Shown here: positions 33,343 through 49,180 of the stretch, piece after piece
Position numbering within the stretch: the stretch's first letter is position 1
How the letters are laid out: each line of letters starts with the position of its first letter
Assembly (NCBI RefSeq): GCF_003664585.1
Contig: NZ_RCHI01000001.1
Coordinates: forward strand, 62,001 to 126,000
Source: Paenirhodobacter hankyongi
Lineage (GTDB): Bacteria > Pseudomonadota > Alphaproteobacteria > Rhodobacterales > Rhodobacteraceae
DNA: 64,000 nucleotides
Reading direction: 5' to 3'
Program-made: the position numbers and the translations under genes
Notes under the pieces: model-generated
Told to the model about the DNA's origin: nothing
Seen by the model: the letters and a program-made list of their open reading frames with translations, nothing else
Databases searched by the model: none

Positions 33343-33399
33343 GTAACTTTGCCGCAGCGCAGAAGCAAGCGCGGCGTCGTGGCCCAGGGGGCGCGGGGC

Positions 33400-34614
33400 T
33401 CAGCGGCGGCGCAGGGCGCGGGGCGGAATGCCGGCGCGGGCGCGCAGCTTGGCCACCACCCGGCGCGAGACGGTGATGCCCGCCTGCGCCAGTGCCTCGG
33501 CCAGTGCGCCGTCGGTCAGCGGTGCGCTCGGATGCTCGGCGCCGACCAGGGCGCGGATGCGGGCGATGACGGCGGGGCCGGCCTCGGCATTCTCGGCCTG
33601 GGCGACGGCGCGGCCGAAGAAGGCGGCCAGCGGTTCGGTTCCGCGGGGGGTCTCGGCCGAGCCTGCGGCGACCATCCGGCTCACCGTGCTTTCATGCAGC
33701 CCGATCGCCGCGGCGACGGCACGGCGGGTCAGCGGGCGCAGCGCGGCGGGGCCGTCGCGCAGGAAGCCCGGCTGTTCGCGGGCGAGCGCCGTGCCAAGCG
33801 CCAGCAGCGCGGCGTTGCGCCGCTCGACCGCGGCAATCAGCGCCTGCGCGGCACGGCGCTCGCGCGCCGGGCCGGTGATCGCGGCCAGGGCAAGGCGCGG
33901 CGCGGTCTCGCGGTTCAGCCGCACGGTCCAGCCCGCGCCCTCGGGGGCGAAGACGAGATCGGCGATGCGGGCGCGGGCAGGGGGTGTCGAAAAGCCCGCG
34001 GCGGGGCGCGGGGTCAGACCGCGCAGTCGCGCGAGCAGCGGCGCAAGCGTGTCGGGCGCGAGCCCCGTGGCGCGGGCGAGCGCCGCGGGGCCGCCCTCGG
34101 CAAGGGTGGGCAGCGCCTCGAGGACGCGGCGCATCTCGGGCGCGATCGGGCCTTCCTCGGCCAGTTGCAGGGCCAGGCACTCGGCAAGCGAGCGGGCGAA
34201 CAGCCCGCGTGGCTCGATCCGCTGCAGCTGCGCCAGCACCGCCTCGATATGCGCGGGCGGCAGGCCGAGGCGGGCGGCGATCGCCGGCGTCGGCGTTGCC
34301 AGAAACCCCTGCGCATCCAGTGCCTCGGCCAGCGCCAGCGCCACCGCGCGGTCGGCGGGGGCGGGAACAAGACCGGGCAGGCGCTCGAGCACATGGGCGA
34401 TGAGGGATGGCCCCTCATCGGCGATCTCGACATCCTCGAGCGCCGCGGCCCGCGGCAGTTCAAGCCGCAGGAAGGGGTTCTCGGCCGCCGCCTCGCGCAG
34501 GCTCTCGCCCAGATCGAGGTTCGACAGGCCGAGCAGGCCGATCGCGCGCACCAGGTCCTGGCTGAGGGTCAGCCGGGTCTGCTGGCGCAGCGCGATGTCC
34601 TGGCGCAGCTTCAT
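33400..34614 (-). CDS. rpoN: RNA polymerase sigma-54 factor (RpoN paralog)
   Basis: A 404-residue sigma-54. Region I is present (RQQTRLTLSQDLVRAIGLL, LREAAAENPFLRLELP), as are the core-binding middle part (EPRGLFARSLAECLALQLAE) and the DNA-binding helix-turn-helix (LTRRAVAAAIGLHESTVSRM). The C-terminal RpoN box, normally ARRTVAKYRE, reads SRRVVAKLRA here, followed by RAGIPPRALRRR. The protein is somewhat shorter than typical RpoN because the acidic region II is short. It overlaps the amidotransferase gene by 4 bp and is the last gene of the amine-catabolic run, not next to the usual rpoN neighbours (hpf, ptsN), so it is probably a secondary, specialised copy as known in Rhodobacter. Confidence 0.9.
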   Translation of the reverse strand: MKLRQDIALRQQTRLTLSQDLVRAIGLLGLSNLDLGESLREAAAENPFLRLELPRAAALEDVEIADEGPSLIAHVLERLPGLVPAPADRAVALALAEALDAQGFLATPTPAIAARLGLPPAHIEAVLAQLQRIEPRGLFARSLAECLALQLAEEGPIAPEMRRVLEALPTLAEGGPAALARATGLAPDTLAPLLARLRGLTPRPAAGFSTPPARARIADLVFAPEGAGWTVRLNRETAPRLALAAITGPARERRAAQALIAAVERRNAALLALGTALAREQPGFLRDGPAALRPLTRRAVAAAIGLHESTVSRMVAAGSAETPRGTEPLAAFFGRAVAQAENAEAGPAVIARIRALVGAEHPSAPLTDGALAEALAQAGITVSRRVVAKLRARAGIPPRALRRR

Positions 34615-35336
34615 GCGGGCGCGATCTCCTCGCCGCGCAGCACGCGGGCAAAGCCGCGGGCGATGCGCTGCTGATCGAGCGGGCCGGCGAGCGAGGCCAT
34701 CGCCTCGGCATGCAGATCCTCGGCCAGCCGCACCCCGTCGGGCGGGGTGATCAGCGCGCGCAGGAAGTCGAGGGTGAACTCCGGGTGGGCCTGCGACGAG
34801 ATCGCCGGGAAGTCGGTGTAGAGAAAGCCGCCGTTCGGCGAGGCGGCGGTCGAGAACAGCCGCTCGGCCCGCGGCGGCGGCACCATGACCTGATCCTGAT
34901 GGATCGAGAGCGCGGGCAGCGCGCCCGGCCCGAAGACCGCCGCGCCGGTGGCGCTCAGGTCGTGGTCATGCCGGCCCACCACCCAGCCGTCGGGCGACTT
35001 GCGCACCTCGCCGCCGAAGGCCTGCGCCATCACCTGATGACCGAAGCAGACACCGGCGAGCGGCACCCGCGCCGCGGCGATGCGCTGCAGCCCGGCGATC
35101 AGCGGCGCGATCCACGGCCGGTCCTCGTAGACGCCGGCGCGCGAGCCGGTGACGAGGAAGGCGTCGAAGGCGGTCAGATCCTCGGGCACCGTCTCGCCCT
35201 CGGCGATGAAGACACGGGTGAAACGCGCCTCGGGCAGCACGGGGGCAAGCCAGCGCGAGAACATGTCGGCATAGCTGCCATGGACGGGCTCGAAGGCGGG
35301 GCCGGTGGTGTCGGTCTCGAGAATGCAGATCTTCAT
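34611..35336 (-). CDS. Class I glutamine amidotransferase-like protein
   Basis: A 241-residue triad-type GATase domain: nucleophile C97 in LAGVCFGHQVMAQAF and the H184-x-E186 pair in SQAHPEFTLDF. No synthetase domain is attached. Relatives are annotated as GMP-synthase-like amidotransferases, and some hydrolyse gamma-glutamyl amide bonds. In this context, after two gamma-glutamyl ligases and an aldehyde dehydrogenase, it could release glutamate from a gamma-glutamylated product, the job done by PuuD in the E. coli putrescine pathway, although PuuD belongs to a different C26 subfamily. It is co-translated with the downstream rpoN and separated from the aldehyde dehydrogenase gene by a hairpin. 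Confidence 0.82.
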   Translation of the reverse strand: MKICILETDTTGPAFEPVHGSYADMFSRWLAPVLPEARFTRVFIAEGETVPEDLTAFDAFLVTGSRAGVYEDRPWIAPLIAGLQRIAAARVPLAGVCFGHQVMAQAFGGEVRKSPDGWVVGRHDHDLSATGAAVFGPGALPALSIHQDQVMVPPPRAERLFSTAASPNGGFLYTDFPAISSQAHPEFTLDFLRALITPPDGVRLAEDLHAEAMASLAGPLDQQRIARGFARVLRGEEIAPA

Positions 35337-35350
35337 GGGGTCCTCGGAAG

Positions 35351-35373
35351 GGGCGGGGGGAGGCCCCCCGCCC
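35351..35373 (-). terminator. GC-rich hairpin between the aldehyde dehydrogenase and amidotransferase genes
   Basis: A perfect 10-bp inverted repeat GGGCGGGGGG/CCCCCCGCCC with a 3-nt loop fills the 44-bp gap. No T-run follows. It may lower expression of the amidotransferase and rpoN genes relative to the genes upstream. Confidence 0.55.
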
Positions 35374-35380
35374 GTTGCTC

Positions 35381-36877
35381 TCAGCTCAGTTCGATCCAGA
35401 CGGATTTCGTCTGGGTGTATTGGGTCAGCGCCTCGAGGCACTTGTCGCGGCCGTTGCCCGATTGCTTGAAGCCGCCCCAGGGGGTGGTGGCATCGCCCGC
35501 CTCGTAGGCGTTGACCCAGACGATGCCGGCCTCGATCTCCTGCGCGAAGCGATGCGCGCTTTTCAGATTCGAGGTCCAGATCGCCGAGGCGAGGCCGTAG
35601 ATCGTGTCGTTCGCGGTGGCAATCGCATGGTCGAGGTCGTCGACCGGGATGATCGAGGCGACCGGGCCGAAGATTTCCTCCTGCGCGATGGTCATCTTGT
35701 TCGACACCTCGGTGAAGAGCGTCGGTTCGACATAGCAGCCGGCGTTGAACCCCGCCGGCACGCCGCCGCCGAAGGCAAGCTTCGCCCCCTCGGCCTTGCC
35801 CTTCTCGATATAGCCGAGCACCCGCGATTGCTGTTCGGGGGTGACGAGCGGGCCCATGGTGGTCGCGGGGTCGAGCGGGTTGCCCGGCACATGCATGCCC
35901 TTCGCGGCCTCGGTGAAAAGCGCGACATAGTCGTCATAGACCTTGCGCTCGACGAGGATGCGTGAGCCGGCCGAGCAGACCTCGCCCTGGTTGCCATAGA
36001 TGCCGGCGACGCCGAAGGTCGCGGCCTTCTCGAGATCGTCGCAATCGGCCAGCACGATCTGCGGCGACTTGCCGCCGCATTCGGTGGTGACGCGCTTCAT
36101 GTTCGACTGGCCGGCATAGACCATCATCAGCTTGCCGACCTCGCCCGAGCCGGTGAAGCCGATCTTGTCGACATCCATGTGCAGCGCGAGCGGCTTGCCG
36201 GTTTCCTCGCCAAAGCCGGTGACGACGTTGAAGACGCCGGCGGGGCCGCCCGCCTCGCAAAAGAGCCTGGCGAGCAGAAGCGCCGAGAGCGGCGACTGTT
36301 CGGCCGGTTTCAGCACCACCGAGTTGCCGCACGACAGCGCCGGGGCCAGCTTCCACGCCGCCATCATCAGCGGGTAGTTCCACGGCACCACGATGCCGCA
36401 CACGCCGAGCGGCTGGCGCAGGATGTAATGCAGCGCATCGGCCCTGGTCGAGGTGACGACGCCCTCCATCTTGTCGATGGTCTCGGCAAAGAAGCGGATC
36501 GTCATCAGCGAGCCGGGGATGTCGATGTTGAGCATGTCCGAGATCGGCTTGCCCATGTCGAGCGTGTCGAGAAGCGCGAAATCCTCGGCGTGCGCCTCGA
36601 TCAGATCGGCGAAGCGGCGCATCACCGCCATCCGGTCCGAGGGCGCCATGCGCGACCACACGCCCGACTTGAACGCCTTCTTCGCGCTCGCGACGGCGCG
36701 GTCGACATCCTCGGCGGTGCCGCGGGCGACTTCGGCCACGACCTCGCCGGTGGCGGGGTTCACGGTCTCGAACTTGCCGCCCTTCGCGGCATCGACGAAG
36801 GCGCCGTCGATGAACAGGCGGGTGTCGGGTTTCAGCGCGGCGGCGCGCGCCTGCCAGTCCTTCAGGGTCATGGTCAT
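35381..36877 (-). CDS. puuC: NAD(P)-dependent aldehyde dehydrogenase, PuuC-like
   Basis: A 498-residue aldehyde dehydrogenase. It has the cofactor/oxyanion motif GIVVPWNYPLMMAAWKLAPAL, the general base in VTTECGGKSPQIVL, the nucleophile cysteine in YGNQGEVCSAGSRILVE and the QEEIFGPVASIIP motif. Overall similarity is to gamma-glutamyl-gamma-aminobutyraldehyde dehydrogenase (PuuC/AldH). The ATG at 36877 follows an AGGAGGTT site; the frame runs open far upstream as a shadow of the permease gene. Lying 14 bp after the polyamine-type permeases, it likely oxidises the aldehyde formed when an amine is oxidised. Confidence 0.9.
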   Translation of the reverse strand: MTMTLKDWQARAAALKPDTRLFIDGAFVDAAKGGKFETVNPATGEVVAEVARGTAEDVDRAVASAKKAFKSGVWSRMAPSDRMAVMRRFADLIEAHAEDFALLDTLDMGKPISDMLNIDIPGSLMTIRFFAETIDKMEGVVTSTRADALHYILRQPLGVCGIVVPWNYPLMMAAWKLAPALSCGNSVVLKPAEQSPLSALLLARLFCEAGGPAGVFNVVTGFGEETGKPLALHMDVDKIGFTGSGEVGKLMMVYAGQSNMKRVTTECGGKSPQIVLADCDDLEKAATFGVAGIYGNQGEVCSAGSRILVERKVYDDYVALFTEAAKGMHVPGNPLDPATTMGPLVTPEQQSRVLGYIEKGKAEGAKLAFGGGVPAGFNAGCYVEPTLFTEVSNKMTIAQEEIFGPVASIIPVDDLDHAIATANDTIYGLASAIWTSNLKSAHRFAQEIEAGIVWVNAYEAGDATTPWGGFKQSGNGRDKCLEALTQYTQTKSVWIELS

Positions 36878-36891
36878 GGGGGAACCTCCTG

Positions 36892-37710
36892 TCATTTCTG
36901 TTTTGTGTCGCGGGTCGAGACCACCGAGACGACGATCAGCACCAGCGACAGCAGCACGATGATCGTGCCGACGGCGTTGATCTCGGGCGTCACGCCGCGG
37001 CGCAGGGTGGAATAGATGTACATCGGCAAGGTATTGTCGCGGCCGGTCAGGAAGAAGGTGACCGGGATCTCGTCGAAGCTCAGCACGAAGCTCAGCATGC
37101 CGGCGCCGACGATGGCGGTGCGGATGTTGGGGAGCGTGATGTCGACGAAGCTGCGCCAGGGCGAGGCGCCCAGATCGAAGGCCGCCTCCTCGAGCGATTT
37201 CGGCAGCCGCTGCAGCCGGGCATAGACCTGGGTCACGACGACGCCCAGAAGCGCCGTGGCATGGCCGAGGATCACCGTTTCCAGGCTGAGCGGGAAGCCG
37301 ATCAGCTTGAACATGTTCAGCATCGAGATGCCGGTGACGATGCCGGGCAGGGTGATCGGCAGCAGGATCAGGCGGCGGAACACCGTCTTTCCGGGGAAGT
37401 TGACCTTGTGCAGCGCGAGTGCCGCGGGCACGCCCACGCACAGCGTCAGGATCGTCGCCCCGGTCGCCACGTAGAAGCTGTTGCGGATCGCGGCGAGCAG
37501 GTCGCCGTTCGAGGCAAGCTTGACATACCAGTCGAGGGTGAAGCCCGACAGCGGCCAGGTCAGCGAGCGCGAGTCGTTGAACGAGAAGGCGATCAGCACC
37601 CAGATCGGGATGTAGAGGAACGCCATCAGCGCCGCGACGAAGGTCATGAAGGCGGTGTCGGCGCCATAGCGGGACACGAGGCCCGGGGCGCGGTTCGGTG
37701 ATTGTGCCAT
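36892..37710 (-). CDS. potI: Polyamine-type ABC permease, PotC/PotI-like
   Basis: A 272-residue inner-membrane permease with six helices and the cytoplasmic EAA loop EEAAFDLGASPWRSFVDITLP. The N-terminal FLYIPIWVLIAFSFNDSRS is typical for PotC/PotI. It follows its partner permease with a 1-bp gap, and precedes the aldehyde dehydrogenase gene. Confidence 0.9.
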   Translation of the reverse strand: MAQSPNRAPGLVSRYGADTAFMTFVAALMAFLYIPIWVLIAFSFNDSRSLTWPLSGFTLDWYVKLASNGDLLAAIRNSFYVATGATILTLCVGVPAALALHKVNFPGKTVFRRLILLPITLPGIVTGISMLNMFKLIGFPLSLETVILGHATALLGVVVTQVYARLQRLPKSLEEAAFDLGASPWRSFVDITLPNIRTAIVGAGMLSFVLSFDEIPVTFFLTGRDNTLPMYIYSTLRRGVTPEINAVGTIIVLLSLVLIVVSVVSTRDTKQK

Positions 37711-37711
37711 G

Positions 37712-38578
37712 TCAGATCCCTCCCGTGGCGCCCTTGCGCTCCATCCGGTCGCTGAGCGAGACGATGGTCAGCACGACGACCAGCATCACGATGGCGAGTG
37801 CGGAGCCGAGCGGCCAGTTCAGTGCGGCGCCGAATTGCGTGGCGATGACGTTGGCGATCAGGTTGCCGTCCGGCCCGCCCACCAGGAAGGGCGCGATGAA
37901 GTCGCCGAACGACAGGCAGAAGGTCAGCGTCGCCCCCGCCGCGATGCCCGGTGCCGAGAGCGGCAGCGTCACCGTCCAGAAGCTGCGCCACGGGCCCATG
38001 CCCAGATCCGCCGCCGCCTCGGTCAGGTTCGCGGGGATCTTCTCGAGCGCGGTATAGATCGGCATCACCATGAAGGGGATGAAGATATAGGTCAGCGTCA
38101 CCACCATCGCGAACTGGTTGTAGAGGAAGATCGAGGAGGGCTCGTCGATCAGGCCGATCGATTTCAGGAACGAGTTCAGCACCCCCTCGGTGCCAAGGAT
38201 GGTCTTCCAGACATAGGCGCGCAGCAGATAGCTGACCCAAAGCGGCGCGATCACCGCCATGTAGAGCCAGGTGCGCAGCTTGGCCGAGCGGCAGCGGAAC
38301 ACCAGCCAATAGGCGAAGGGATAGGCCAGCAGCAGCGAGGCCACCGACACCAGCACCGAGATCTTCAGCGTGCGCAGCAGCACCAGCACATATTGCGGGT
38401 CGGTGAAGAGGGTGACGTAATTGCCGAACTGGAAGGCCGGCACGAAGGTCGGGTATTTCTTCACCCAGAACGAGAAGGTGACGATGATCCCGTAGGGGAG
38501 CAGCATGAAGAGGGCGATCCAGAGCAGCGGAATGCCCAGCACCATCACCCCCGAGAGGTTGCGGCGGGCGTGGCTCAC
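37712..38578 (-). CDS. potH: Polyamine-type ABC permease, PotB/PotH-like
   Basis: A 288-residue permease with six membrane helices, the EAA loop TEAAADLGMGPWRSFWTVTLP and the PotH-type first loop FSFWVKKYPTFVPAFQFGN. The start overlaps the ATPase stop by 4 bp. Forms the channel with the next gene product. Confidence 0.9.
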   Translation of the reverse strand: MSHARRNLSGVMVLGIPLLWIALFMLLPYGIIVTFSFWVKKYPTFVPAFQFGNYVTLFTDPQYVLVLLRTLKISVLVSVASLLLAYPFAYWLVFRCRSAKLRTWLYMAVIAPLWVSYLLRAYVWKTILGTEGVLNSFLKSIGLIDEPSSIFLYNQFAMVVTLTYIFIPFMVMPIYTALEKIPANLTEAAADLGMGPWRSFWTVTLPLSAPGIAAGATLTFCLSFGDFIAPFLVGGPDGNLIANVIATQFGAALNWPLGSALAIVMLVVVLTIVSLSDRMERKGATGGI

Positions 38579-39672
38579 GGCGTGACCTCCCCCTCGAAGA
38601 CGAAGACGTTGTGCGGCTCGACGGCAAGGCGCAGGCTTTGTCCGAGCGGCGGCACCGGGCTGAGCGCGAGGCGGTCGGGAAGCAGGCTGTCGGTATAGAC
38701 GCGGCTGCCGTCCGCGAGCTCGACCGCAAGCCGCAGCCCGAGCCCGTAATAGATCACCTCGGCGACCCGGCCCTCGAGCACGTTTTCCGCGGTTTCGCCC
38801 TCGGCGAGCAGGCGCACCTTCTCGGGGCGGCAGCCGGCGGTGACGGTGCTGCCCGCGACCAGCGGCGCATCGACGATCGCGCTCAGCCGGCCGCCGCCGA
38901 TCTCGATCTCGGCGCGCTCGCCCGTGCAGCGGATGACGCGGCCGGGCAGGAAGTTGGTGGTGCCGATGAAATTCGCGACATAGGGCGAGGCGGGGTGGTC
39001 ATAAAGCTCCTGCGGGCGGCCCTGCTGGGCGATGCGGCCCTTCTCCATCACCACGACGCGGTCCGACATGACGAGCGCCTCGGTCTGGTCATGGGTGACC
39101 ATGACGAAGGTGATGCCGACCTTCTCGTGCAGGTGCTTCATCTCGATCTGCATCTGCTCGCGCAGCTTCGCATCGAGCGCCGAGAGCGGCTCGTCGAGCA
39201 GCAGCACCTTCGGTTCGCGCACGATGGCGCGGGCCAGGGCGATGCGCTGGCGCTGACCGCCCGAGAGCTGCTGGGGACGCAGCTTCACCTTGTCGAAGAG
39301 ACCGACGAGCTTGAGCGCATCATGCACCTTGGTCTCGATCTCGAGCCGGCCGAGGCCCTTGACCTTGAGCCCATAGCCGACGTTCTCGCCCACGGTCATG
39401 TGCGGGAAGAGGGCATAGTCCTGGAACACCATGTTGACCTCGCGCTTGTAGGGCGGGTCCCAGGTGACGTCCTTGTCGGCCAGGCGGATGGTGCCGTGGG
39501 TGGGCGTCTCGAAGCCGCCGATCATCCGCAGGAGCGTGGATTTCCCGCAGCCCGAGGGGCCGAGCAGCGTGACGAATTCGCCGTCCTCGACCGTCAGCGA
39601 GACATTGTCCACGCCGATGATCGTCGGGCTGTAGTGTTTGGAGATGTTCTCCAGTTCGATGATTGCGGCCAT
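38575..39672 (-). CDS. potG: Polyamine-type ABC transporter ATP-binding protein, PotA/PotG-like
   Basis: A 365-residue ATPase with Walker A LLGPSGCGKSTLLRMIGG, signature QQLSGGQRQRIALARAIV, Walker B KVLLLDEPLSALDAKL and a C-terminal TOBE regulatory domain (about residues 245-360, including PEKVRLLAEG). The ATG at 39672 gives the family start; longer frames upstream are not supported by a ribosome site. The CUT1/PotA-like size and TOBE domain, with PotF-like and PotH/I-like neighbours, mark a putrescine/spermidine-type importer. Confidence 0.92.
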   Translation of the reverse strand: MAAIIELENISKHYSPTIIGVDNVSLTVEDGEFVTLLGPSGCGKSTLLRMIGGFETPTHGTIRLADKDVTWDPPYKREVNMVFQDYALFPHMTVGENVGYGLKVKGLGRLEIETKVHDALKLVGLFDKVKLRPQQLSGGQRQRIALARAIVREPKVLLLDEPLSALDAKLREQMQIEMKHLHEKVGITFVMVTHDQTEALVMSDRVVVMEKGRIAQQGRPQELYDHPASPYVANFIGTTNFLPGRVIRCTGERAEIEIGGGRLSAIVDAPLVAGSTVTAGCRPEKVRLLAEGETAENVLEGRVAEVIYYGLGLRLAVELADGSRVYTDSLLPDRLALSPVPPLGQSLRLAVEPHNVFVFEGEVTP

Positions 39673-39748
39673 GTCGCCTTTCCCTGAAACGTGGCGCCCG
39701 GGCTCTCCTCCCCCGAAAACCCGGCGCCCTTTTGATTGGTGGCCCGGC

Positions 39749-39772
39749 CCGGGATGCCGCGCGGCATCCCGG
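39749..39772 (-). terminator. Intercistronic hairpin after the polyamine-type binding-protein gene
   Basis: A perfect 10-bp repeat, CCGGGATGCC and GGCATCCCGG around a GCGC loop, lies in the 113-bp gap between binding-protein and ATPase genes. No T-run. Its position matches the hairpin at 9964-9987 after the other binding-protein gene. Confidence 0.6.
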
Positions 39773-39785
39773 ATCGGGCGGGTCG

Positions 39786-40832: not shown

Positions 40833-40852
40833 TTCGTGTCTCCACTGTTGGT

Positions 40853-40863
40853 TGAACGGCCGT

Positions 40864-40866
<3 letters not shown>
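40853..40866. repeat. 14-bp perfect palindrome at the activator stop codon
   Basis: TGAACGGCCGTTCA is fully self-complementary and overlaps the stop codon of the sigma-54 activator gene, 21 bp before the binding-protein start. As DNA it could be a dimeric protein site; as RNA the loop would be too tight for a good terminator. Function unknown. Confidence 0.4.
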
Positions 40867-42246
<1,380 letters not shown>

Positions 42247-42264
42247 CGCGTCACCTCCCATCCC

Positions 42265-43455
42265 TCAGCGCTCCGCCCGGAAGCGCGCGATGCGCCCCGC
42301 CGGGGCGCCCGCGAGCGCCGGGCCGCGCTTCAGCCGCAGGCTGAGGACCAGGCACTCGGTTTCGCGCAGGCGCAGCGGCCGGGCCTGCATCTCGGCCCGC
42401 CCCCCGGTTTCCGAGCGCAGCGGCACCACCGTCCAGGTCCGGTCGGGATGGCCCGGCAGCCGCCCCGCCGCGGCCTCGAACAGCGTCTCGAGCGGCAGGG
42501 GCAGCTCGATGTAGTCGCCCAGTTCGCGCGTCGCATAGGCGTCGGTTGCCAGCGACAGCAGCTCCTCGGCCGCAAGGTTCGTGCGCAGCAGGTGCCCGGC
42601 GCGGTCGATCACCAGCACCGCATCGGGCAGCGCCGTCAGCACCGCCTCGAGCGCCTCGATCTCGTCGCGCAGCACCGCGGCGCGGCGGGCGTGTTTCGAG
42701 ACGTCGCGCACCGTGCCCCACATCCGGGTCAGCCGGTTGCCGCGGATATGGCCGCGCACGTCGTTCTCGACCTCGATCCAGACCCCGTCATAGCGTAGAT
42801 CGCGCGAGGGCGAGGCGGTGACGTCGAAGCTCGCGCGCACCAGACGGCGGACGAAATCCTCGTTTTCCGGCGTGCGCGGGAAGGTCTCGTGCACCGGCAG
42901 TTCGTTGAAGTCATGGCTAGGCGGGGCGCGGTAGAGCCGCGCCATCGCCTCGTTGCAGAAACGCCAGCGCGGGCCGTTCTCGAAGACCTGGCGGATCGTC
43001 TCCTGCTCGGGCGCGGACAGGTCGACGGGTTCCGCCCATTCCATGCACCAGCCCGCATCGTCCGAGGTGGCGAGGATCGAGGCGATCACCTCGTTCTCCT
43101 CGGCCAGCCGCTCGACCGCGTCGATCATCCCGCCGCGCGGCCATTTGAAGAGCCGCAGGCAGGGGCCCGCGAGCGGGTCCTCGACCCGCTCGATCACCGC
43201 CGTCACCGGCAGCGTCGAGGCGCCCGCACAGCGCAGCTCGAGCGCCAGCACCTGCGGCCAGGGGCCGGTGAGGGCAAACAGCGTCTCCAGCCGCTCGCGC
43301 GCGGCCAGCGGATAGATCAGTGACCACGGACGGCCGGCGGCCGCGCCCGGGTCAAGCCCGAGCGCGGCATCCTGCAGGGGACTCGCGCGCAGGATCGTCC
43401 CGTCGCGCGCGAGCCAGTCTTCCAGCATCGAACCTTGCGGTTCCCGTGCTCCCAT
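42265..43455 (-). CDS. PAS-domain protein without recognisable output domain
   Basis: A 396-residue soluble protein. I see at least two PAS-like modules: one around residues 145-265 (a window with RWRFCNEAMARLYRAP, then IWVEVENDVRG-like and MWGTVRDVSKHARR) and one around 280-370 (LTALPDAVLVIDRAGHLL). The N-terminal 100 residues may be a third. No kinase, GGDEF, EAL or DNA-binding motif follows. The last segment resembles the PAS domain of the activator encoded 18 bp downstream, suggesting duplication or heterodimer formation. A ligand sensor that modulates the activator is a reasonable guess. The ATG at 43455 has GGGGAG upstream. Confidence 0.7.
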   Translation of the reverse strand: MGAREPQGSMLEDWLARDGTILRASPLQDAALGLDPGAAAGRPWSLIYPLAARERLETLFALTGPWPQVLALELRCAGASTLPVTAVIERVEDPLAGPCLRLFKWPRGGMIDAVERLAEENEVIASILATSDDAGWCMEWAEPVDLSAPEQETIRQVFENGPRWRFCNEAMARLYRAPPSHDFNELPVHETFPRTPENEDFVRRLVRASFDVTASPSRDLRYDGVWIEVENDVRGHIRGNRLTRMWGTVRDVSKHARRAAVLRDEIEALEAVLTALPDAVLVIDRAGHLLRTNLAAEELLSLATDAYATRELGDYIELPLPLETLFEAAAGRLPGHPDRTWTVVPLRSETGGRAEMQARPLRLRETECLVLSLRLKRGPALAGAPAGRIARFRAER

Positions 43456-43480
43456 CAAGTGATCTCCCCGTCGGCCCCGC

Positions 43481-44962
43481 TCAGGGCACGCAATGCAAGT
43501 AGCGTTCCACATCCCAATTGGTGACCTCGCGCAGGAAGCGCGTCCACTCATCCTGCTTGTATTCGTCGAAGACGTCGTAGAGACGCCCCGGCAGTGCCGA
43601 GCGAATGACCTCGTCCTTTTCCAAAGCGGTCAATGCATCGCGCAGATTGAGAGGGATGAGCTTGACCGGCTCGCCCGACTGCCAGACCTCGGTGACGTTA
43701 CGCGATTCGGGGGCGCCCGGGTCGATCTTGTTGCGGATGCCGTCGTCCATCGCCTTCAGCAGCGCGCCGCAGAAGAGATGCGGGTTCACCATGCTGTCGA
43801 CGGCGCGGAACTCGAACCGGTCGGGGGACGAGATGCGGATCGTGCAGGAGCGGTTCTGCAGACCCCAGTTCGCCCCGATCGGCGCCCAGAGGCCGAAGTC
43901 GTTGAAGCGGCGATAGGAGTTCACCGTCGAGGCGCCGATGCAGGTGAGCGCGTCGATGTGCTTGAGCGAGCCGCCGAGAATGTGGTGGCCAAGTTCCGTC
44001 GGCAGCCAGCCGCCGTCCTTGTTCTCGAACTCGTTCACCCCACCCTTCGAGTAGTGCCACAGCTCTTCCATGCCCGGAAGCTCGCCCGGGATCAGCTGCT
44101 GCAGCTCGCGCGAGCCGCCGGTCCAGACCGAACAGTTGTGGTGGCAGCCGTTCGCGGCATAGCCCATGAAGGGTTTCGCCATGAAGCAGGCAATCAGCCC
44201 GTTCTGCCGCGCCACCTCGGCGCAGATCTGGCGATAGGTGGTCATCCGGTCGCAGGTCGGCAGCGCGTCGTCGAACTGATAGTTCAGCTCGATCTGGCCG
44301 GGGGCGTCCTCGCAATCGCCCTGGATCATGTCGAGACCCATGGCGCGGGCGTAATCCGACACCTGCATCCAGATGTTGCGGGCGCTCTCGAACTGGCCGA
44401 TGTGATAGGCATAGGCCTCGGTGATGCCCTCATAGGGGCGGACCTCGCCATCCTTCGGCTTCAGCCACAGCATCTCGGGCTCGAGGCCGACGCGCAGCGT
44501 GAGGCCGTTATGCGCCTCGCGGAACTCGCGGTCGAAGCGCTTGAGGTTGCCGCGGGTGTCGTATTCGTAATGCTGGCCCGGGAAGTTCGGGTCTTCGAGG
44601 CTGTAATAGAGCGTGCAGAAGACGCGCGCGACGCGCTTGTCCCAGGGCAGCTGGCAGAAGGTGTCGGGATCGGGCAGCGCGATGCATTCCATCGCGTTGC
44701 TGTCGAACCCGATCAGGTTGCCCTTGAAGTTCGGGGTGACGTCGGCGACGCCGCCCATCCAGGTCTGTACGCCCTTGCGCGCCTGGGTCTCCCAGTGCCG
44801 CGCCGGGGCGGCCTTGCCCATCACGCGGCCGGTGATCGAGATGTATTGGTAATAGATGTAATCGACGCCAAGCGCGTCGATCTTGCGGCGCACGCGCTCG
44901 ACCAGCGCGGCGCGGCCGGGCGCCTCGATCTCGCGGTGATAGTCGGTGTCAGTGGTGGTCAT
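43481..44962 (-). CDS. Glutamine-synthetase-family gamma-glutamyl amine ligase (493 aa)
   Basis: A 493-residue member of the GS fold. Metal and ATP-site motifs are visible: GLEPEMLWLKP, GQIELNYQF, AANGCHHNCSVWTGG, and the arginine-rich NRSCTIRISSPDRFEFR. The N-terminal 60 residues (YIYYQYISITGRVMGKAAPA) are longer than in GlnA and fit the branch that ligates glutamate to amines. It lies beside another GS-like gene and a P450 system, as in amine-degradation operons of actinobacteria (morpholine, piperidine type). Likely reaction: ATP-dependent formation of a gamma-glutamyl amide from glutamate and an amine. True ammonia assimilation is less likely. Confidence 0.85.
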   Translation of the reverse strand: MTTTDTDYHREIEAPGRAALVERVRRKIDALGVDYIYYQYISITGRVMGKAAPARHWETQARKGVQTWMGGVADVTPNFKGNLIGFDSNAMECIALPDPDTFCQLPWDKRVARVFCTLYYSLEDPNFPGQHYEYDTRGNLKRFDREFREAHNGLTLRVGLEPEMLWLKPKDGEVRPYEGITEAYAYHIGQFESARNIWMQVSDYARAMGLDMIQGDCEDAPGQIELNYQFDDALPTCDRMTTYRQICAEVARQNGLIACFMAKPFMGYAANGCHHNCSVWTGGSRELQQLIPGELPGMEELWHYSKGGVNEFENKDGGWLPTELGHHILGGSLKHIDALTCIGASTVNSYRRFNDFGLWAPIGANWGLQNRSCTIRISSPDRFEFRAVDSMVNPHLFCGALLKAMDDGIRNKIDPGAPESRNVTEVWQSGEPVKLIPLNLRDALTALEKDEVIRSALPGRLYDVFDEYKQDEWTRFLREVTNWDVERYLHCVP

Positions 44963-44988
44963 GGTCGTCTCCCTGTTGTTCTGACCAC

Positions 44989-46305
44989 TCAGCCTTCGAG
45001 ATAGCGGGCGCGTTCTTCGGCGCTGACCGCTTTCGCGAGGCTGGCGTATTCGGCGCGGCAGGCGGCCGCGAAATTCTGGCAGAAGGCCTGCCCGAAGATG
45101 CGCGCGGCATCGGGCGAGGCGGCGAGGCGGTCGGCCGCCTCGGCAAGGTCGCGCGGAAAGCGTTGGGCACCCTCGGGCACGACATCGGGATGCGTGGCGG
45201 TGGCGGGGGCGGGGGTGTCAAGCTGCCGCTCGATCCCGTCGAGCCCCGCGCCCAGCATCAGCGCAAGCGTGAGATAGGGGTTGCAGTCGGCCGGCGGCAC
45301 CCGGAATTCGAGCCGCGCGCGGTCGCCCGCATGGGGGGCCGAGCGCACCGCAACGGTGAACGGGTATTCGGCCCAGGTCAGCGATTTCGGCGCCCAGCTG
45401 CCCGGCGCAAGCCGGCGATAGGCGTTCACCGTCGAGGTGCACATCGCGAAGGCCTGCGGCACGATCTGCATCATGCCGGCGATGAACGAGCCCGCAAGCG
45501 CCGAGGTCTTCGCCTCGGGGTCCGAGAATAGGTTCTTGCCCGTCGCCTTGTCGCGCAGCGAGACGGTGCAGTGCCCGCCGATGCCGGGGTATTCGGCGCC
45601 GAGATAGGGCATGAAGCTCGCCGTCTTGCCCATCTTGCGGGCATAGGACCGCGCCGCCATGCGGAAGAAGGCGGCGTCATCGGCCGCGCGCAGCCCCTCG
45701 GTCGCGCCGAGCGTCGCCTCGAGGCAGCCCGGCCCGAGCTCGACGCCCAGACCGTAGAGCGCGACGTCATGGCCGAGGATCTCGGCCTCCATCCCGGCGA
45801 TGAACGCGGCATGGGTGTTTGCCGTGGCGCCCGACCAGCACTTGTTGTCGGGGGCGAATTTCGCAAGGCCGGTGAAACCCTTCTCGCGCACCGAGGTGTC
45901 GGTCTCGTCGAGCACGATCACCTCGAATTCGAAGGCCGCGTCGACGGTGAAGCCCATGGCGGCGGCGCGGTCGATCTGCCGGCGCAGCACCTCGCGCGGC
46001 ATCAGCTCCTTCGCGGCACCCGAGAGCTCGGCGATCACCGTGACGGCGCCGGGCTCGGACGGGTTGCGGCGCATCGAGCTTGGGTCGATCTCGACCGTCT
46101 CGGTGTAGAAGGCATCGCCGCCATAGAGGTTGTCGGCGCTGTCCCAATAGGCGAGGACGTTGGCAAAGCGCGCGTCCGTCGCCCAGTCGAGGAATTGCGG
46201 GCGGCGCAGCCGGCGTTCGCGGAACACCGAGGCATAGTCGAACTGGCCGACATGGACGATCTCGGCATTCAGGGCGTCAAGGGCGGCGGTCAGGTCGTGG
46301 GTCAT
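44989..46305 (-). CDS. Glutamine-synthetase-family gamma-glutamyl amine ligase (438 aa), PuuA-like
   Basis: A 438-residue GS-fold protein in the PuuA size range. The catalytic half shows AAFEFEVIVLDETD, GLGVELGPGCLEATLG, GGHCTVSLRDKATG and RLEFRVPPADCNPYLTLALM. The N-terminal beta-grasp region is divergent (HVGQFDYASVFRERRLRR). The tyrosine adenylylation site of GlnA is not evident. It is 7 bp after the ferredoxin reductase gene and 26 bp before the other GS-like gene. Two paralogous ligases may use different amines or form a mixed oligomer. Confidence 0.83.
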   Translation of the reverse strand: MTHDLTAALDALNAEIVHVGQFDYASVFRERRLRRPQFLDWATDARFANVLAYWDSADNLYGGDAFYTETVEIDPSSMRRNPSEPGAVTVIAELSGAAKELMPREVLRRQIDRAAAMGFTVDAAFEFEVIVLDETDTSVREKGFTGLAKFAPDNKCWSGATANTHAAFIAGMEAEILGHDVALYGLGVELGPGCLEATLGATEGLRAADDAAFFRMAARSYARKMGKTASFMPYLGAEYPGIGGHCTVSLRDKATGKNLFSDPEAKTSALAGSFIAGMMQIVPQAFAMCTSTVNAYRRLAPGSWAPKSLTWAEYPFTVAVRSAPHAGDRARLEFRVPPADCNPYLTLALMLGAGLDGIERQLDTPAPATATHPDVVPEGAQRFPRDLAEAADRLAASPDAARIFGQAFCQNFAAACRAEYASLAKAVSAEERARYLEG

Positions 46306-46312
46306 CGGGGCC

Positions 46313-47530
46313 TCAGGCGGTAAGCGTTTCGGTCAGCGCCGCGTCAAGACGGGCGCGGGCCCTGGCGAGGGCGGCAGGGTTCGCACCGAGGCCGAGCACG
46401 CCGACCGGCTCGCCCCCGCGCAGGTATTCGACGATCACCGGTGCGCGGCCGACGAGCGACAGCTCGCCTTCCAGCACCCGGCAGGCGTCGGCGAGATAGG
46501 GCGCGCCGAAGGCCTGCAGCCGCATCCCGTGCTGGTCCGACCAGAACGAGGGCATCGGCGCGAAGCGGGTGGCAAGGGCCGTGCCCGTGGCTTCGGCGGC
46601 AAGCGTCTCGCCCACCCGTTTCGCGGTCTGGCCGGGCACGCACCAATGCTCGGTGCGGCGTGCCTCGGGGCCGAAGAGCGGGTTGACGAAGCGGGCGACG
46701 TCGCCCACCGCCATCAGCCCCTCGGCGCCGGGGGCGATCATCCGGTCGTCGACCAGCACGCCGTCGCGCAGATCGGCGCCCGATCCCGCAAGCCATTCGA
46801 CATTCGGGTGCGAGCCGAGCGCCTCGACGATCACCTCGGCGGCAAGTGCCTGACCGTCGTCGAGGATCACGCCCTCGTCCGAGAAGCCCGCGACCGAGCG
46901 GCCGGTGAGCAGCACGACGCCATGGGCGCGGTGCAGCGCCGCCATCGCCGCGGCGACGCGCGGGCCGAGGGCGCGCAGCATCGGTTGCGGCGAGGGCTCG
47001 ACGATCGTCGCCTCGAGGCCGAGCTTGCGGCCGGTCGCGGCGATCTCGCAGCCGATGAAGCCACCGCCGATCACCACCATCCGCGCGCCGGGGCGCAGGC
47101 TCGGGGCCAGGCGGACGAGGTCGTCGAAGCTGCGCAGCACGTGGCGGCGGGCCTCGGCGCCCGGCAGGGGCAGGCGGCGCGGGCGCAGCCCGGTTGCCGC
47201 GATCACCCGCTCGCCCGGCACCAGCGCGCCATCGGCGAGCCGCACGCCGCCCGGTTCGAGCGCCACCGCGCCCGACCCGAGACGCAGGCTCAGCGCCGCG
47301 GGCGAAAGCTTCGAGCGCAGCAGCAGCTTGCCGAACACCGCCTCGCGCGCCGCGGTGTCGCGGGCCAGCGTCTCGGCCGCCTCCTTCGACAGCGGCGGGC
47401 GGTTGTAGGGGGCGAGCGGTTCGTCGCCCACAAGGGTGATCCGCGCCGCGGGCAGGGCGGCGTGAACCGCCTCTGCCGTGCGCAGGCCCGCAAGCGAAGC
47501 CCCGACGATGGTGATGCGCGGCGCGGTCAT
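46313..47530 (-). CDS. FAD-dependent ferredoxin reductase for the P450 system
   Basis: A 405-residue oxygenase-coupled NAD(P)H:ferredoxin reductase. It has the FAD motif ITIVGASLAGLRTAEAVHAA, the loop YNRPPLSKE that is characteristic of putidaredoxin-reductase-like proteins, the NAD motif VVIGGGFIGCEIAATGRKLG and the flavin contact LMAVGDVARF. It begins 4 bp after the ferredoxin stop. It hands electrons from NAD(P)H to the 3Fe-4S ferredoxin and so to the P450. The frame continues upstream, but the 47530 start is the one consistent with the ferredoxin gene boundary. Confidence 0.92.
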   Translation of the reverse strand: MTAPRITIVGASLAGLRTAEAVHAALPAARITLVGDEPLAPYNRPPLSKEAAETLARDTAAREAVFGKLLLRSKLSPAALSLRLGSGAVALEPGGVRLADGALVPGERVIAATGLRPRRLPLPGAEARRHVLRSFDDLVRLAPSLRPGARMVVIGGGFIGCEIAATGRKLGLEATIVEPSPQPMLRALGPRVAAAMAALHRAHGVVLLTGRSVAGFSDEGVILDDGQALAAEVIVEALGSHPNVEWLAGSGADLRDGVLVDDRMIAPGAEGLMAVGDVARFVNPLFGPEARRTEHWCVPGQTAKRVGETLAAEATGTALATRFAPMPSFWSDQHGMRLQAFGAPYLADACRVLEGELSLVGRAPVIVEYLRGGEPVGVLGLGANPAALARARARLDAALTETLTA

Positions 47531-47534
47531 GGCG

Positions 47535-47720
47535 TCAGCCGAGAAGGATCGCCTGCTCGGGGCAGGCATCGGCGGCGGCTTCGACATCGGCGCGCTGCGC
47601 CTCGTCCACTTCGGCGACCCAGACGAGCCCGCCGTCGTCGTCGAAGGAGAACACCTCCGGCGCGGCGATCACGCATTGGCCGTGCAGCAGGCAGATCGAC
47701 ATGTCGACATCAACTTTCAT
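47535..47720 (-). CDS. 3Fe-4S ferredoxin of the P450-associated type
   Basis: A 61-residue ferredoxin. Cysteines C10 and C16 (SICLLHGQC) and C53 (ACPEQAI) are present, while the usual second cysteine position is H13. This CxxHGxC...CP pattern is that of the single-cluster ferredoxins that serve actinobacterial and alphaproteobacterial P450s. The segment APEVFSFDDDGGLVW is also typical. It lies between the P450 and the reductase genes, so the three make a class I electron chain. Confidence 0.92.
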   Translation of the reverse strand: MKVDVDMSICLLHGQCVIAAPEVFSFDDDGGLVWVAEVDEAQRADVEAAADACPEQAILLG

Positions 47721-47760
47721 TTTCGCTTCCCTGTGTCTGATGGGGTCTGGGTGGCTTGGA

Positions 47761-48960
47761 TCAGGCCGGATCGAAGGCGATCGGCAGGGTGATGGCGCCG
47801 GTGTTGCCGCTGTCGGCGAGCCATTTCACCTCGCCGTTGAAGCGCGGGTTCTTCAGCCGCTGGGCGAGCAGCTTCAGCGCCTCGGTCATGTCGCCGCGGG
47901 CGATGAAATGGCCGAGGCAATGGTGCGCGCCGCCGCCAAAGCCGAAATGCGGCTTGCGTTCGGCGGTGATGTCGAAGCCGGGCTCGGGGAAGACCGCGGG
48001 GTCCGAGGTCGCCGATTGCGAGAACAGGTGGATCGTCGTGCCGGCCTTGATCGGCAGGTCGTTGTAGGTGAAATCCTCGGTCGCCTCGCGGGTGACCCAG
48101 GTCACCGTCGGACGCACGCGCATCACCTCCTCGACCGCGGCGCGGGCGAGATCGGGCTGTTCGGCCAGCAGTGCCCATTGCTCGGGGTGCTCGATGAAGG
48201 TCGCCATCGCCAGGCCGAGCTGGTTGCGGGTGGTGTCGATGCCGCCGAAGATCGCCAGAACGATCATGTCGAGCAGCTCCTGGTCCGAGAGCTGCGACTT
48301 GTCGGCATTGGCCTGCACCAGCATGCCGACGAAATCGTCGGACGGATTGGCGCGCTTCAGTGCCACCAGATCCTCGGCGTATTTCAGCAGTCGGGCGGTT
48401 GCCGCCTCGACCGTGGCGAGGTCCTGCTTGAAGGTCACGCCAAGCGCGAGGCCCATCTCGGCGGCGATGTCGGCGAGCTCGCGCCAGGTCTCGAAGGGCA
48501 GGCCGAGCAGGTCGCAGATCACGCCGGTGGCATAGGGTTCGGTGAACTCGGCGATGAAGTCGCATTCGCCCTTCGCGGCGAAGCCGTCGATCAGCTTGTT
48601 GGCGAGCGCCTGGAACTTCGGCCGCAGCTCGGTGATGAGCTTGGGCGAGAAGGCGGGGTTCGCCATCCGGCGCAGGCGCGAATGGGTCTCGCCCTCCTGC
48701 GACAGCAGCATCGCGCCCCACCAGCGGGCAAACAGACCGCCGTGCACGTCGCTCAGCTCGGGCCAGCGATAGGAGCCCTGGCGCAGCTTCGGATGGCGCA
48801 GCAGCTTCATCACGTCGTCATAGCGCAGCACCGCGATGCCGTAGTTGGTGCGGGCATACCAGCTCGCCTCGCGGGCATCGAGGACCGCCTGCGAGCGGAT
48901 CGAGAAGGTGGGGGCGGCAACGTCCAGATAGGGCGCTTCGGCGAGGGTTTCTTGCGTCAT
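47761..48960 (-). CDS. Cytochrome P450
   Basis: A 399-residue soluble bacterial P450. The heme-binding loop is FGFGGGAHHCLGHFIARGD with the cysteine ligand; the I-helix oxygen-activation motif is AIFGGIDTTRNQ, with D-T in place of the more common E/D-T; the K-helix ExxR is EEVMR; and the C-terminus is MTEALKLLAQRLKN-like. It is the first gene after the -24/-12 promoter and carries its own ferredoxin and reductase genes downstream. With two GS-like amine ligases, an amine importer and an aldehyde dehydrogenase in the same run, oxidation of an amine C-N bond (N-dealkylation or ring opening) is the best guess. GGAG lies 9 bp before the ATG. Confidence 0.94.
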   Translation of the reverse strand: MTQETLAEAPYLDVAAPTFSIRSQAVLDAREASWYARTNYGIAVLRYDDVMKLLRHPKLRQGSYRWPELSDVHGGLFARWWGAMLLSQEGETHSRLRRMANPAFSPKLITELRPKFQALANKLIDGFAAKGECDFIAEFTEPYATGVICDLLGLPFETWRELADIAAEMGLALGVTFKQDLATVEAATARLLKYAEDLVALKRANPSDDFVGMLVQANADKSQLSDQELLDMIVLAIFGGIDTTRNQLGLAMATFIEHPEQWALLAEQPDLARAAVEEVMRVRPTVTWVTREATEDFTYNDLPIKAGTTIHLFSQSATSDPAVFPEPGFDITAERKPHFGFGGGAHHCLGHFIARGDMTEALKLLAQRLKNPRFNGEVKWLADSGNTGAITLPIAFDPA

Positions 48961-49004: not shown

Positions 49005-49020
49005 TGCAAGTTCCGTTCCA
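49005..49020 (-). promoter_or_regulatory. Sigma-54 -24/-12 promoter upstream of the P450 operon
   Basis: On the minus strand the sequence is TGGAACG, 4 bp, TTGCA, preceded by T; the consensus is TGGCACG-N4-TTGCW. Only one base of the -24 block differs. The -12 block ends 45 bp before the P450 start, so the transcript would have a leader of about 35 nt. A sigma-54 factor and a sigma-54 activator are encoded within the same run. Confidence 0.8.
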
Positions 49021-49135: not shown

Positions 49136-49180
49136 GCGATGCGTCGTTGCATCGCTGCATCGGGGCATCTGCGCATCACC
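49136..49180. repeat. Four 8-bp direct repeats GCATCNNN with an inverted copy, candidate enhancer site
   Basis: GCATC occurs at 49149, 49157, 49165 and 49173, exactly every 8 bp. The first copy also forms GCGATGC-N6-GCATCGC (49136-49155), a perfect 7-bp dyad. The cluster is about 120-160 bp upstream of the -24/-12 promoter, the normal distance for an enhancer-binding-protein site. The rest of the 365-bp gap between the P450 gene and the LpxR-like gene contains an AT-rich stretch near 49021-49080 but nothing else I can name. Confidence 0.5.

What the first reader, a model, noticed from the sequence alone, without database searches (positions are those of the whole stretch)
33400..48960. A 14-gene amine-catabolic run combining P450, two gamma-glutamyl ligases, a polyamine importer and its own sigma-54
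Fourteen minus-strand genes follow each other with gaps of mostly under 45 bp (largest 113 bp): P450, 3Fe-4S ferredoxin, ferredoxin reductase, two GS-like ligases, PAS protein, sigma-54 activator, PotF/G/H/I-like importer, PuuC-like dehydrogenase, class I amidotransferase, RpoN. The E. coli Puu pathway uses a gamma-glutamyl ligase, an FAD oxidase (PuuB), PuuC and PuuD. Here ligases and PuuC-like enzyme are present, the FAD oxidase is absent and a complete P450 chain is present instead; P450 plus GS-like genes are known from morpholine/piperidine degradation in mycobacteria. I infer a P450-based variant of gamma-glutamyl amine catabolism with dedicated transcription machinery.
Basis: partly seen in the sequence, partly recalled or inferred. 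Interest (0 to 1): 0.9.

Follow-up and report, generated by a model that had tools for sequence, protein, structure and literature searches.

The report
Amine-degradation operon with private sigma-54
A 14-gene bacterial operon, probably for eating a small ring-shaped amine, carries its own transcription factor of the sigma-54 type, and in several relatives that factor is the only one of its kind found in the genome sequence.

Summary
The 14-gene minus-strand run (48960 to 33400) is real, and its order recurs across Rhodobacterales and in Pacificispira; parts recur in rhizobia, Pseudomonas and actinobacteria (GS-like gene within 10 kb of 70 of 80 P450 homologs). The chemistry looks like a P450 variant of gamma-glutamyl amine catabolism, related to piperidine/morpholine (PipA/MorA) clusters; PuuA, PuuC and PuuD criteria are not met. 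The substrate is inferred.

The stronger finding is regulatory. Both exact TGGMACRN4TTGCW sites of the genome lie in this operon, before P450 and before PAS-activator. A dyad lies upstream in 32 of 34 activator-bearing loci. RpoN is the last mapped operon gene in 16 genomes, whose RpoNs group together. In seven draft genomes it is the only RpoN found, and the operon's activator the only GAFTGA-bearing one found. The RpoN box, identical in 14 housekeeping RpoNs compared, is changed here, and the promoter differs in step (TGGCAC to TGGAAC). I read this as a dedicated, partly portable sigma-54 circuit for one catabolic operon. RpoNs dedicated to nif or flagella are known; a private catabolic one did not show in the ten paper searches made.

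The parts
49138..49169 (.). Two adjacent 16-bp dyads (GMTGC-N6-GCAKC), probable enhancer sites of the sigma-54 activator
   Evidence: Exact matches at 49138-49153 and 49154-49169 (in the window alone 5 hits vs 2.0 expected, not significant). The weight comes from relatives: 32 of 34 loci with the activator (window included) have it with <=1 mismatch, shuffles mean 1.4, max 5; without activator 5 of 45, shuffles mean 2.8. The motif was found on 26 of these same loci, so the count is partly circular
49005..49020 (-). Sigma-54 -24/-12 promoter TGGAACGGAACTTGCA before P450
   Evidence: 2 matches to TGGMACRN4TTGCW in 64 kb, shuffles mean 0.01; the pattern was widened to allow A after this site was seen. 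Whole genome: 2 matches, both here; the reversed-pattern control gave 4, so it is the placing, not the number, that counts
47761..48960 (-). Cytochrome P450 (399 aa), heme Cys348, D242-T243 pair
   Evidence: Pfam p450; alignment A1; best solved structure 3p3l, 37% identical, 147 of 394
47535..47720 (-). [3Fe-4S]-type ferredoxin, 61 aa (CxxHxxC...CP)
   Evidence: Sequence; found next to the P450 in relatives. Cluster type read from the motif, recalled; no NCBIfam match
46313..47530 (-). NAD(P)H ferredoxin reductase
   Evidence: Pyr_redox_2 and Reductase_C
44989..46305 (-). GS1: GS-like, probable gamma-glutamyl ligase, 438 aa
   Evidence: Gln-synt_C; best PDB match glutamate-methylamine ligase 9qur; metal ligands kept, E327 to W, R339 to F
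43481..44962 (-). GS2: GS-like, probable gamma-glutamyl ligase, 493 aa
   Evidence: Gln-synt_C; PDB best 8ool glutamine synthetase, then 9qur; metal ligands kept, D50 to W, E327 to W, Tyr397 absent
43494..43509 (-). Second sigma-54 promoter TGGAACGCTACTTGCA, inside the GS2 3' end, before PAS-activator
   Evidence: Found also in the near-identical S. ferrireducens operon, not at a like place in the more distant same-order operons scanned
42265..43455 (-). PAS-domain protein, possible sensor partner of the activator
   Evidence: Pfam PAS; 33 of the 34 loci with the activator within 10 kb of the P450 also have it
40864..42246 (-). Sigma-54 activator: PAS, AAA+ with GAFTGA, HTH
   Evidence: Pfam; GAFTGA
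39786..40832 (-). Polyamine-type solute-binding protein (YdcS/PotD/PotF-like)
38575..39672 (-). PotA-type ABC ATPase
   Evidence: TIGR01187 potA 365 bits, over its cut-off 355.6
37712..38578 (-). PotB/PotH-type permease
36892..37710 (-). PotC/PotI-type permease
35381..36877 (-). PuuC-like aldehyde dehydrogenase
   Evidence: Aldedh; NCBIfam PuuC 582 bits, cut-off 850
34611..35336 (-). Class-I glutamine amidotransferase, probable gamma-glutamyl-amide hydrolase
   Evidence: GATase; best solved match gamma-glutamyl peptidase 1, 9k7i, E 5e-13
33400..34614 (-). Dedicated sigma-54 (RpoN), RpoN box SRRVVAKLRA
   Evidence: Sigma54_AID, CBD, DBD; groups with 15 other in-operon RpoNs; box table

Best explanation
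It is a self-contained sigma-54 catabolic operon for a small, probably cyclic secondary, amine. Proposed chemistry (inferred): an ABC importer brings the amine in; P450 with its ferredoxin and reductase hydroxylates the carbon next to nitrogen; the ring opens to an amino-aldehyde; a GS-like ligase caps the freed amine with glutamate so that it cannot re-close; the PuuC-like dehydrogenase oxidises the aldehyde; the amidotransferase-fold hydrolase frees glutamate and an omega-amino acid (GABA from pyrrolidine, 5-aminovalerate from piperidine). Proposed regulation (anatomy shown, action inferred): the PAS protein and the PAS-bearing activator sense the amine or a product; the activator binds dyads about 120-150 bp upstream of a -24/-12 promoter; and the operon's own RpoN, from the last gene, supplies the sigma factor, so induction feeds itself. 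The operon RpoN differs in its DNA-reading box together with its promoter and is probably devoted mainly to this operon.
For: Chemistry: GS-like gene within 10 kb of 70 of 80 P450 homologs, ALDH of 36, amidotransferase of 28 (loci end 10 kb away or at contig ends, so lower bounds). Both GS keep the metal ligands but lose the ammonium-site residues D50 and E327. Streptomyces loci have P450-ferredoxin-reductase-GS-PuuC-like, and many actinobacterial loci a C26-family hydrolase. PMC9477822 (passages seen) reports that mycobacterial PipA is induced by piperidine and that recombinant MorA with its partners oxidises morpholine. Rhizobial loci split the genes into units, and strong or near-strong sigma-54 sites stand before the P450 unit and the divergent amidotransferase-PAS-activator unit in 7 of 7 scanned, and also before the importer in 5 of 7 (one lacks the importer in the DNA held, one has no such site); this ties importer and P450 together. 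Regulation: both exact promoter matches of the 3.8-Mb genome are in the operon; the variant-promoter search finds the site before P450 in 10 of the 14 genomes of the main operon-RpoN subclade; dyad in 32 of 34 activator loci; RpoN last mapped gene in 16 genomes, separated from the 29 other rows with support 100/99; in 7 draft genomes the sole PF04552 hit, and none of the 27 other PF00158 hits of 95 bits or more there carries GAFTGA or GSFTGA; promoter base 4 is A in 13 of 14 subclade operons and C in 16 of 16 comparison loci.
Against: No expression, growth or enzyme data. 10 of 80 P450 homologs have no GS within the DNA held, 6 of these on contigs under 11 kb. Of 8 other family genomes with a P450 homolog of 42-61%, only G083 has GS genes beside it; two have a weaker or distant GS hit 9-15 kb off. 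GS1 lacks R339 and may not be catalytic. Only one of 80 loci (P. oleovorans) has the glutarate-route genes, with another ORF between them and the P450. Some operons lack ALDH (G171, G172, G174, G176) or the amidotransferase (G170). RpoN absence rests on draft genomes and MAGs. The window's own genome has a second RpoN, itself with an altered box, and a second GAFTGA activator (contig C52), so an altered box is not unique to this operon. The number of genome-wide promoter matches is below the reversed control (2 vs 4). A circuit that makes its own sigma factor needs a seed; no sigma-70-type promoter was found by a simple scan.
Confidence: 0.68

Rival explanations
1. Glutamate is attached first: a primary di- or polyamine is gamma-glutamylated on import, and the P450 then hydroxylates the gamma-glutamyl amine in the place of PuuB.
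For: Importer is polyamine-type; ligases and PuuC-like enzyme as in Puu; in the same genome the GS1 paralog sits behind a FAD oxidase, as if oxidase and P450 were exchangeable partners.
Against: The nearest characterised P450s that I know of, PipA and MorA, are reported to act in cyclic-amine use (PMC9477822 passages). Ammonium-site changes fit either order.
Confidence: 0.25
2. The operon RpoN is an ordinary redundant copy; the other RpoN of the genome, or both, drive the operon, and its place at the end is incidental.
For: The window genome has a second RpoN; other lineages have the same enzymes and activator with only an RpoN elsewhere (rhizobia, Caenispirillum, Tabrizicola MAG).
Against: Sole RpoN found in seven genomes; last mapped gene in 16 genomes and beside the module in Oricola and on the TOH plasmid; box and promoter differ in step.
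Confidence: 0.15
3. The RpoN also serves unseen targets, so it is not dedicated to this operon.
For: Extra variant-promoter sites: G176 three, G167 one, G155 one (reversed control 5 over all 19 genomes against 18 matches); canonical sites exist, e.g. three each in G169 and G176.
Against: In the seven sole-RpoN genomes canonical sites hardly differ from the reversed control (9 vs 8), and no second GAFTGA activator was found.
Confidence: 0.3

Closest known systems
Mycobacterial pip/mor clusters (PipA, MorA; CYP151 family by recall) and Gulosibacter pipA/bioI
   Same: P450 with ferredoxin, reductase and a GS-like gene; actinobacterial homologs here have that order; Gulosibacter P450s lie by glutamine synthetase genes that are overexpressed with molinate (PMC9477822 passages; gene numbers suggest adjacency)
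   Different: No activator, binding-protein or RpoN hit in the mapped actinobacterial loci; C26-family hydrolase instead of the amidotransferase. Identity to PipA/MorA not computed (no sequence held)
E. coli Puu pathway
   Same: Logic: gamma-glutamyl capping, PuuC-like dehydrogenase, hydrolase
   Different: P450 for PuuB, other ligase and hydrolase families, ABC importer, sigma-54 control instead of PuuR (Puu details recalled)
Specialised RpoN paralogs of Cereibacter sphaeroides (RpoN1 nif, RpoN2 flagella, RpoN3 xrpA)
   Same: One RpoN per function with a cognate activator (PMC11999139, passages seen)
   Different: There the genome keeps four RpoNs; here RpoN ends the catabolic operon itself and can be the sole RpoN found. 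The four-RpoN genome G051 (that it is C. sphaeroides is my inference) has no P450 of 42% or more, and its three RpoNs read correctly fall outside the operon group
Gordonia KTR9 plasmid pGKT2 P450 (cyp151C and glnA-xplB by recall)
   Same: P450 57% identical, followed by a GS-like stretch 41% identical to GS2
   Different: GS-like stretch runs up to an annotated FAD-dependent oxidoreductase (that they are fused is recalled); no importer, activator or RpoN hit

Membership tests
Puu pathway | PuuA gamma-glutamylputrescine synthetase (NF045547, cut-off 650) | tested here: not met
   GS1 141 bits, GS2 191 bits
Puu pathway | PuuB FAD oxidase in the cluster | tested here: not met
   No oxidase of the DAO family among the 14 genes; one beside a GS1 paralog on another contig
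Puu pathway | PuuC (NF007352, cut-off 850) | tested here: not met
   582 bits; best family but under cut-off
Puu pathway | PuuD, Peptidase_C26 | tested here: not met
   Window gene is GATase PF00117, no C26 match; C26-family genes occur in actinobacterial loci and a PuuD-like one under cut-off in TOH
PipA/MorA (CYP151) P450 | Over 40% identity to a named CYP151 | tested here: inconclusive
   37% to 3p3l, 147 of 394 (that this is AurH/CYP151A is recalled); 57% to the pGKT2 P450 (the name CYP151C is recalled)
PipA/MorA (CYP151) P450 | P450 next to ferredoxin, reductase and GS-like gene | tested here: met
   Window and Streptomyces/Arthrobacter loci
PipA/MorA (CYP151) P450 | Oxidises cyclic secondary amines | not testable with these tools
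   Needs enzyme assay
Gamma-glutamyl amine ligase | GS fold with metal ligands but changed ammonium site | tested here: met
   (residue roles recalled)
Sigma-54 (RpoN) | AID, core-binding and DNA-binding domains | tested here: met
   all three over cut-off
Sigma-54 (RpoN) | TIGR02395 cut-off 277.35 bits | tested here: not met
   232.8 bits: a divergent member
Sigma-54 (RpoN) | RpoN box ARRTVAKYRE | tested here: not met
   SRRVVAKLRA; the nine residues ARRTVAKYR are the same in all 14 housekeeping rows, while some other non-operon RpoNs also differ
Sigma-54-dependent operon | -24/-12 promoter, upstream enhancer, GAFTGA activator | tested here: met
   (sequence only)

The most novel reading that the evidence does not exclude
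A catabolic operon has captured sigma-54 and turned it into a private, partly insulated transcription system: sigma factor, activator, sensor, enhancer and promoter form one unit, RpoN box and promoter have coevolved away from the canonical pair, the whole sigma-54 regulon of several cells has shrunk to this operon, and a related module travels on a plasmid (Paracoccus sp. TOH) in a family of which most sampled members have no sigma-54 at all.
Probability: 0.5. Interest if true: 0.85.

Novelty: new variant of a known kind. Interest (0 to 1): 0.74.

Why it matters
Sigma-54 is usually treated as a global factor with one near-invariant DNA-reading box (recalled). Here are natural variants of that box whose promoters differ in step, so how sigma-54 specificity evolves can be tested directly; they are also candidate insulated sigma/promoter pairs for synthetic biology. 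The module suggests how a sigma-54-dependent pathway can enter hosts without sigma-54: RpoN was over cut-off in only 45 of 149 sampled genomes of the family. It also gives a gene set to test for degradation of cyclic amines in proteobacteria.

Tried and rejected
Rejected: the Puu pathway as family (four criteria fail). Rejected: the 15th gene (32178-33305) as part of the module (found only in the genome matching S. ferrireducens). Rejected: co-inheritance throughout the family; of 149 family genomes 10 (own included) carry a P450 homolog of 42% or more, the next listed being 35% or less, and two of the 10 have the whole operon; within the genus GS1 is strong in 7 of 18 genomes.

Led nowhere: paper searches for piperidine, pyrrolidine and morpholine pathways gave only the Gulosibacter paper as directly relevant in the listings; no paper on Paracoccus sp. 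TOH among the ten rows listed (122 papers matched, mostly 'strain Tohama'); PipA's original paper is not held; two other papers looked at by passage were of no help (PMC10820124; PMC10301208); PMC8197338 (passages) lists two CYP151C members in Alphaproteobacteria. The dyad search in the window alone is not significant. Rfam found nothing at 31000-50500; the terminator scan is at chance level.

Rows left out of the promoter/RpoN count (14 vs 16 loci): L072, L073, L081 (A at base 4, their RpoN not examined), L085, L087 (Gemmobacter, TGGCCC, operon RpoN basal), L088 (TGGCCC; none of its genome's RpoNs was placed by the operon, and the one stretch read, L262, lacks it), L091 (TGGCAT, no activator in the locus), L108 and L142 (no site near -60), and loci without activator. 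The RpoN of L106's genome was not searched. Fisher p = 1.2e-7 treats related loci as independent, so it is too strong. In one search two loci with under 350 bp upstream (L073, L115) dropped out; its shuffles keep base composition only. In one search one RpoN of G051 (L266) was read in the wrong frame and drew the root; that row should be ignored.

Full report
OBSERVATION. The window lies in a 3.8-Mb draft genome; genome G046 of the same genus, which matches the S. ferrireducens contig, carries the same operon at 97-100% identity.

DISTRIBUTION. A scan of one genome per species with a P450 alignment found 254 relatives, of which the tool kept the best 80. Mapping the operon's genes on these 80 gave, within 10 kb of the P450, GS2-type genes in 70, GS1 in 38, ALDH in 36, activator in 34, PAS in 34, amidotransferase in 28. 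Loci end 10 kb from the P450 or at contig ends, so later genes are undercounted; labels follow the best window query, at about 40% identity in actinobacteria. In the stretches fetched the order P450-Fdx-FdR-GS1-GS2-PAS-activator-importer-ALDH-amidotransferase-RpoN was followed to RpoN, in part joined by eye with the loci; Salipiger, Defluviimonas, Salinihabitans and MAG CG17 lack ALDH, Pacificispira lacks the amidotransferase, and the Tabrizicola MAG lacks ALDH and RpoN there. Other lineages reshuffle: Oricola has PAS-activator-importer-RpoN before P450-GS1-GS2-ALDH-amidotransferase; in Rhizobium alvei the P450 is fused to a diflavin reductase (965 aa), with a like stretch behind the P450 in six other rhizobial loci, and a divergent amidotransferase-PAS-activator unit; Streptomyces and Arthrobacter loci have P450-Fdx-FdR-GS, with PuuC-like ALDH in Streptomyces and C26-family hydrolases; Pseudomonas loci have P450, a gene of unclear reductase type, amidotransferase and a GS gene. 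In P. oleovorans GlaH and LhgO (both over cut-off) and an aminotransferase lie upstream, with one EAL-type ORF between; a five-carbon product would fit, but this is one of 80 loci. Plasmids: 13 of 72,556 records had a P450 match at E 1e-60. Paracoccus sp. TOH plasmid p2 has the enzymes and MFS-PAS-activator-RpoN; a Ruegeria plasmid has P450, GS1, GS2, importer and amidotransferase beside an Lrp-type regulator, with no activator.

Negative side: 10 of 80 loci show no GS gene, and of 8 further family genomes with a P450 homolog of 42-61% only G083 (GS1-GS2-P450) has GS genes beside it.

CHEMISTRY. GS1 and GS2 keep E129, E131, E212, E220, H269, R344, E357 and R359 (E. coli numbering), but E327 is Trp in both, D50 is gone and Tyr397 is absent; GS1 also has Phe for R339. 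Solved matches include a glutamate-methylamine ligase. The amidotransferase's best solved match is a gamma-glutamyl peptidase. The binding protein matches polyamine-type proteins. P450 features are intact. Order of steps and substrate are inference; PMC9477822 (passages) supplies the PipA/MorA link.

REGULATION. TGGMACRN4TTGCW occurs twice in the window (shuffles mean 0.01; the pattern was widened after the first site was seen) and twice in the whole genome, where the reversed control gives 4: before P450 (49005-49020) and before PAS-activator (43494-43509). The variant TGGAACNNAACTTGCA with one mismatch allowed was sought in 19 genomes (18 matches, reversed control 5): in G158, G165, G166, G168, G169 and G174 the site before P450 is the only hit; G000 has its two operon sites; G155 and G167 have that site and one extra, G176 that site and three extra; G046 has only the internal site; G170, G171, G172, G173, G175, G191 and G193 have none, and G177 one elsewhere. 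A dyad GMTGC-N6-GCAKC lies mostly 180-215 bp (range about 140-243) before the P450 start in 32 of 34 loci with an activator against 5 of 45 without; it was derived on 26 of these loci, where the commonest 4-base dyad was in 9 against at most 3 in shuffles.

DEDICATED SIGMA-54. I searched 37 genomes of my choice (most from the 80 loci) for RpoN. In 16 it is the last mapped operon gene (in G168 on a separate contig that begins with permease-ALDH-amidotransferase-RpoN), and in Oricola it lies just before the P450; 2 of 37 have none; in the rest it was not found by the operon. The 16 are split from the other 29 rows with support 100/99, and Oricola and the TOH plasmid pair at 100/96 (midpoint root). 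Seven genomes (Thioclava pacifica, Antarcticimicrobium luteum, MAG SZUA-611, Thioclava sp. JE_KL1, Defluviimonas sp. WL0075, Salinihabitans flavidus, MAG CG17) show no other PF04552 hit. In these seven the GAFTGA/GSFTGA DNA pattern meets a PF00158 hit only at the operon activator; four other pattern hits are not activators, and 27 further PF00158 hits of 95 bits or more all lack the motif (weaker hits were not read, Ser codons AGY are not in the pattern). Two Roseovarius genomes have no RpoN and no activator in the locus.

COEVOLUTION. All 14 housekeeping RpoNs have ARRTVAKYR. Window type: SRRVVAKLR with promoter TGGAAC; Salipiger SRRTVARLR with TGGACA; Defluviimonas PRRMVTRIR with TGGTCA; Gemmobacter (two) (P/T)RRRIAKYR with TGGCCC; Oricola and TOH ARRTVAKYR with TGGCAT and TGGCAC. 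Base 4 is A in 13 of 14 main-subclade operons and C in 16 of 16 comparison loci. Against a simple reading, other non-operon RpoNs also have altered boxes (own contig C52 SRRAVANHR, G180 and G181 SRRT..NRR, G175 C10 ARRTVTKFR). That the RpoN box reads the -24 element is recalled.

WHY CARRY IT. RpoN is over cut-off in 45 of 149 genomes of the family, so a sigma-54-dependent operon moving in this family will often land in a cell without sigma-54.

LITERATURE. RpoN1-3 of C. sphaeroides each serve one function (PMC11999139, passages). No paper on an amine operon with its own RpoN appeared in ten listings; only open-licence PMC papers were searched.

VERDICT. Real, conserved, probably a cyclic-amine pathway, with an unusually self-contained sigma-54 system. 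How the loop is seeded is unexplained.

Noticed in passing
G000 contig C52:1-6500 (L255); related L260 (G180:C16:78001-96000): Second RpoN of the genome with an odd box (SRRAVANHR) near a sigma-54 activator with a GAF domain; in G180 a sister RpoN sits between CobW and CoA-transferase genes, near a like activator. Possibly another catabolic cluster with its own sigma-54.
   Followed up: partly
G000 contig C8, L069:7715-10230: GS1 paralog (68%) directly behind a FAD oxidase of the DAO family, with a GntR-type regulator upstream: the oxidase-ligase pairing in the same genome.
   Followed up: partly
L100:9965-12862; like stretches in L092, L093, L098, L101, L102, L106: Natural fusion of this P450 to a diflavin (CPR-like) reductase, 965 aa; on the Paracoccus sp. 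TOH plasmid a diflavin reductase is a separate gene behind the P450.
   Followed up: partly
window 32178-33305, minus: FAD/NAD reductase (weakly sulfide quinone reductase-like) 94 bp after RpoN, seen only in the closest relative.
   Followed up: yes
window 49250-51481, plus: 743-aa ORF with a Hint_2 domain, divergent from the operon and next to its upstream region.
   Followed up: no
window 29386-32171, plus: PAS hybrid histidine kinase and response regulator pair, convergent with the operon's 3' end.
   Followed up: no
L270, L277, L281, L290, L293, L301 and others: Several PF00158 proteins in these genomes have GAFPGA or a deleted loop instead of GAFTGA, so are probably sigma-54-independent.
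   Followed up: yes
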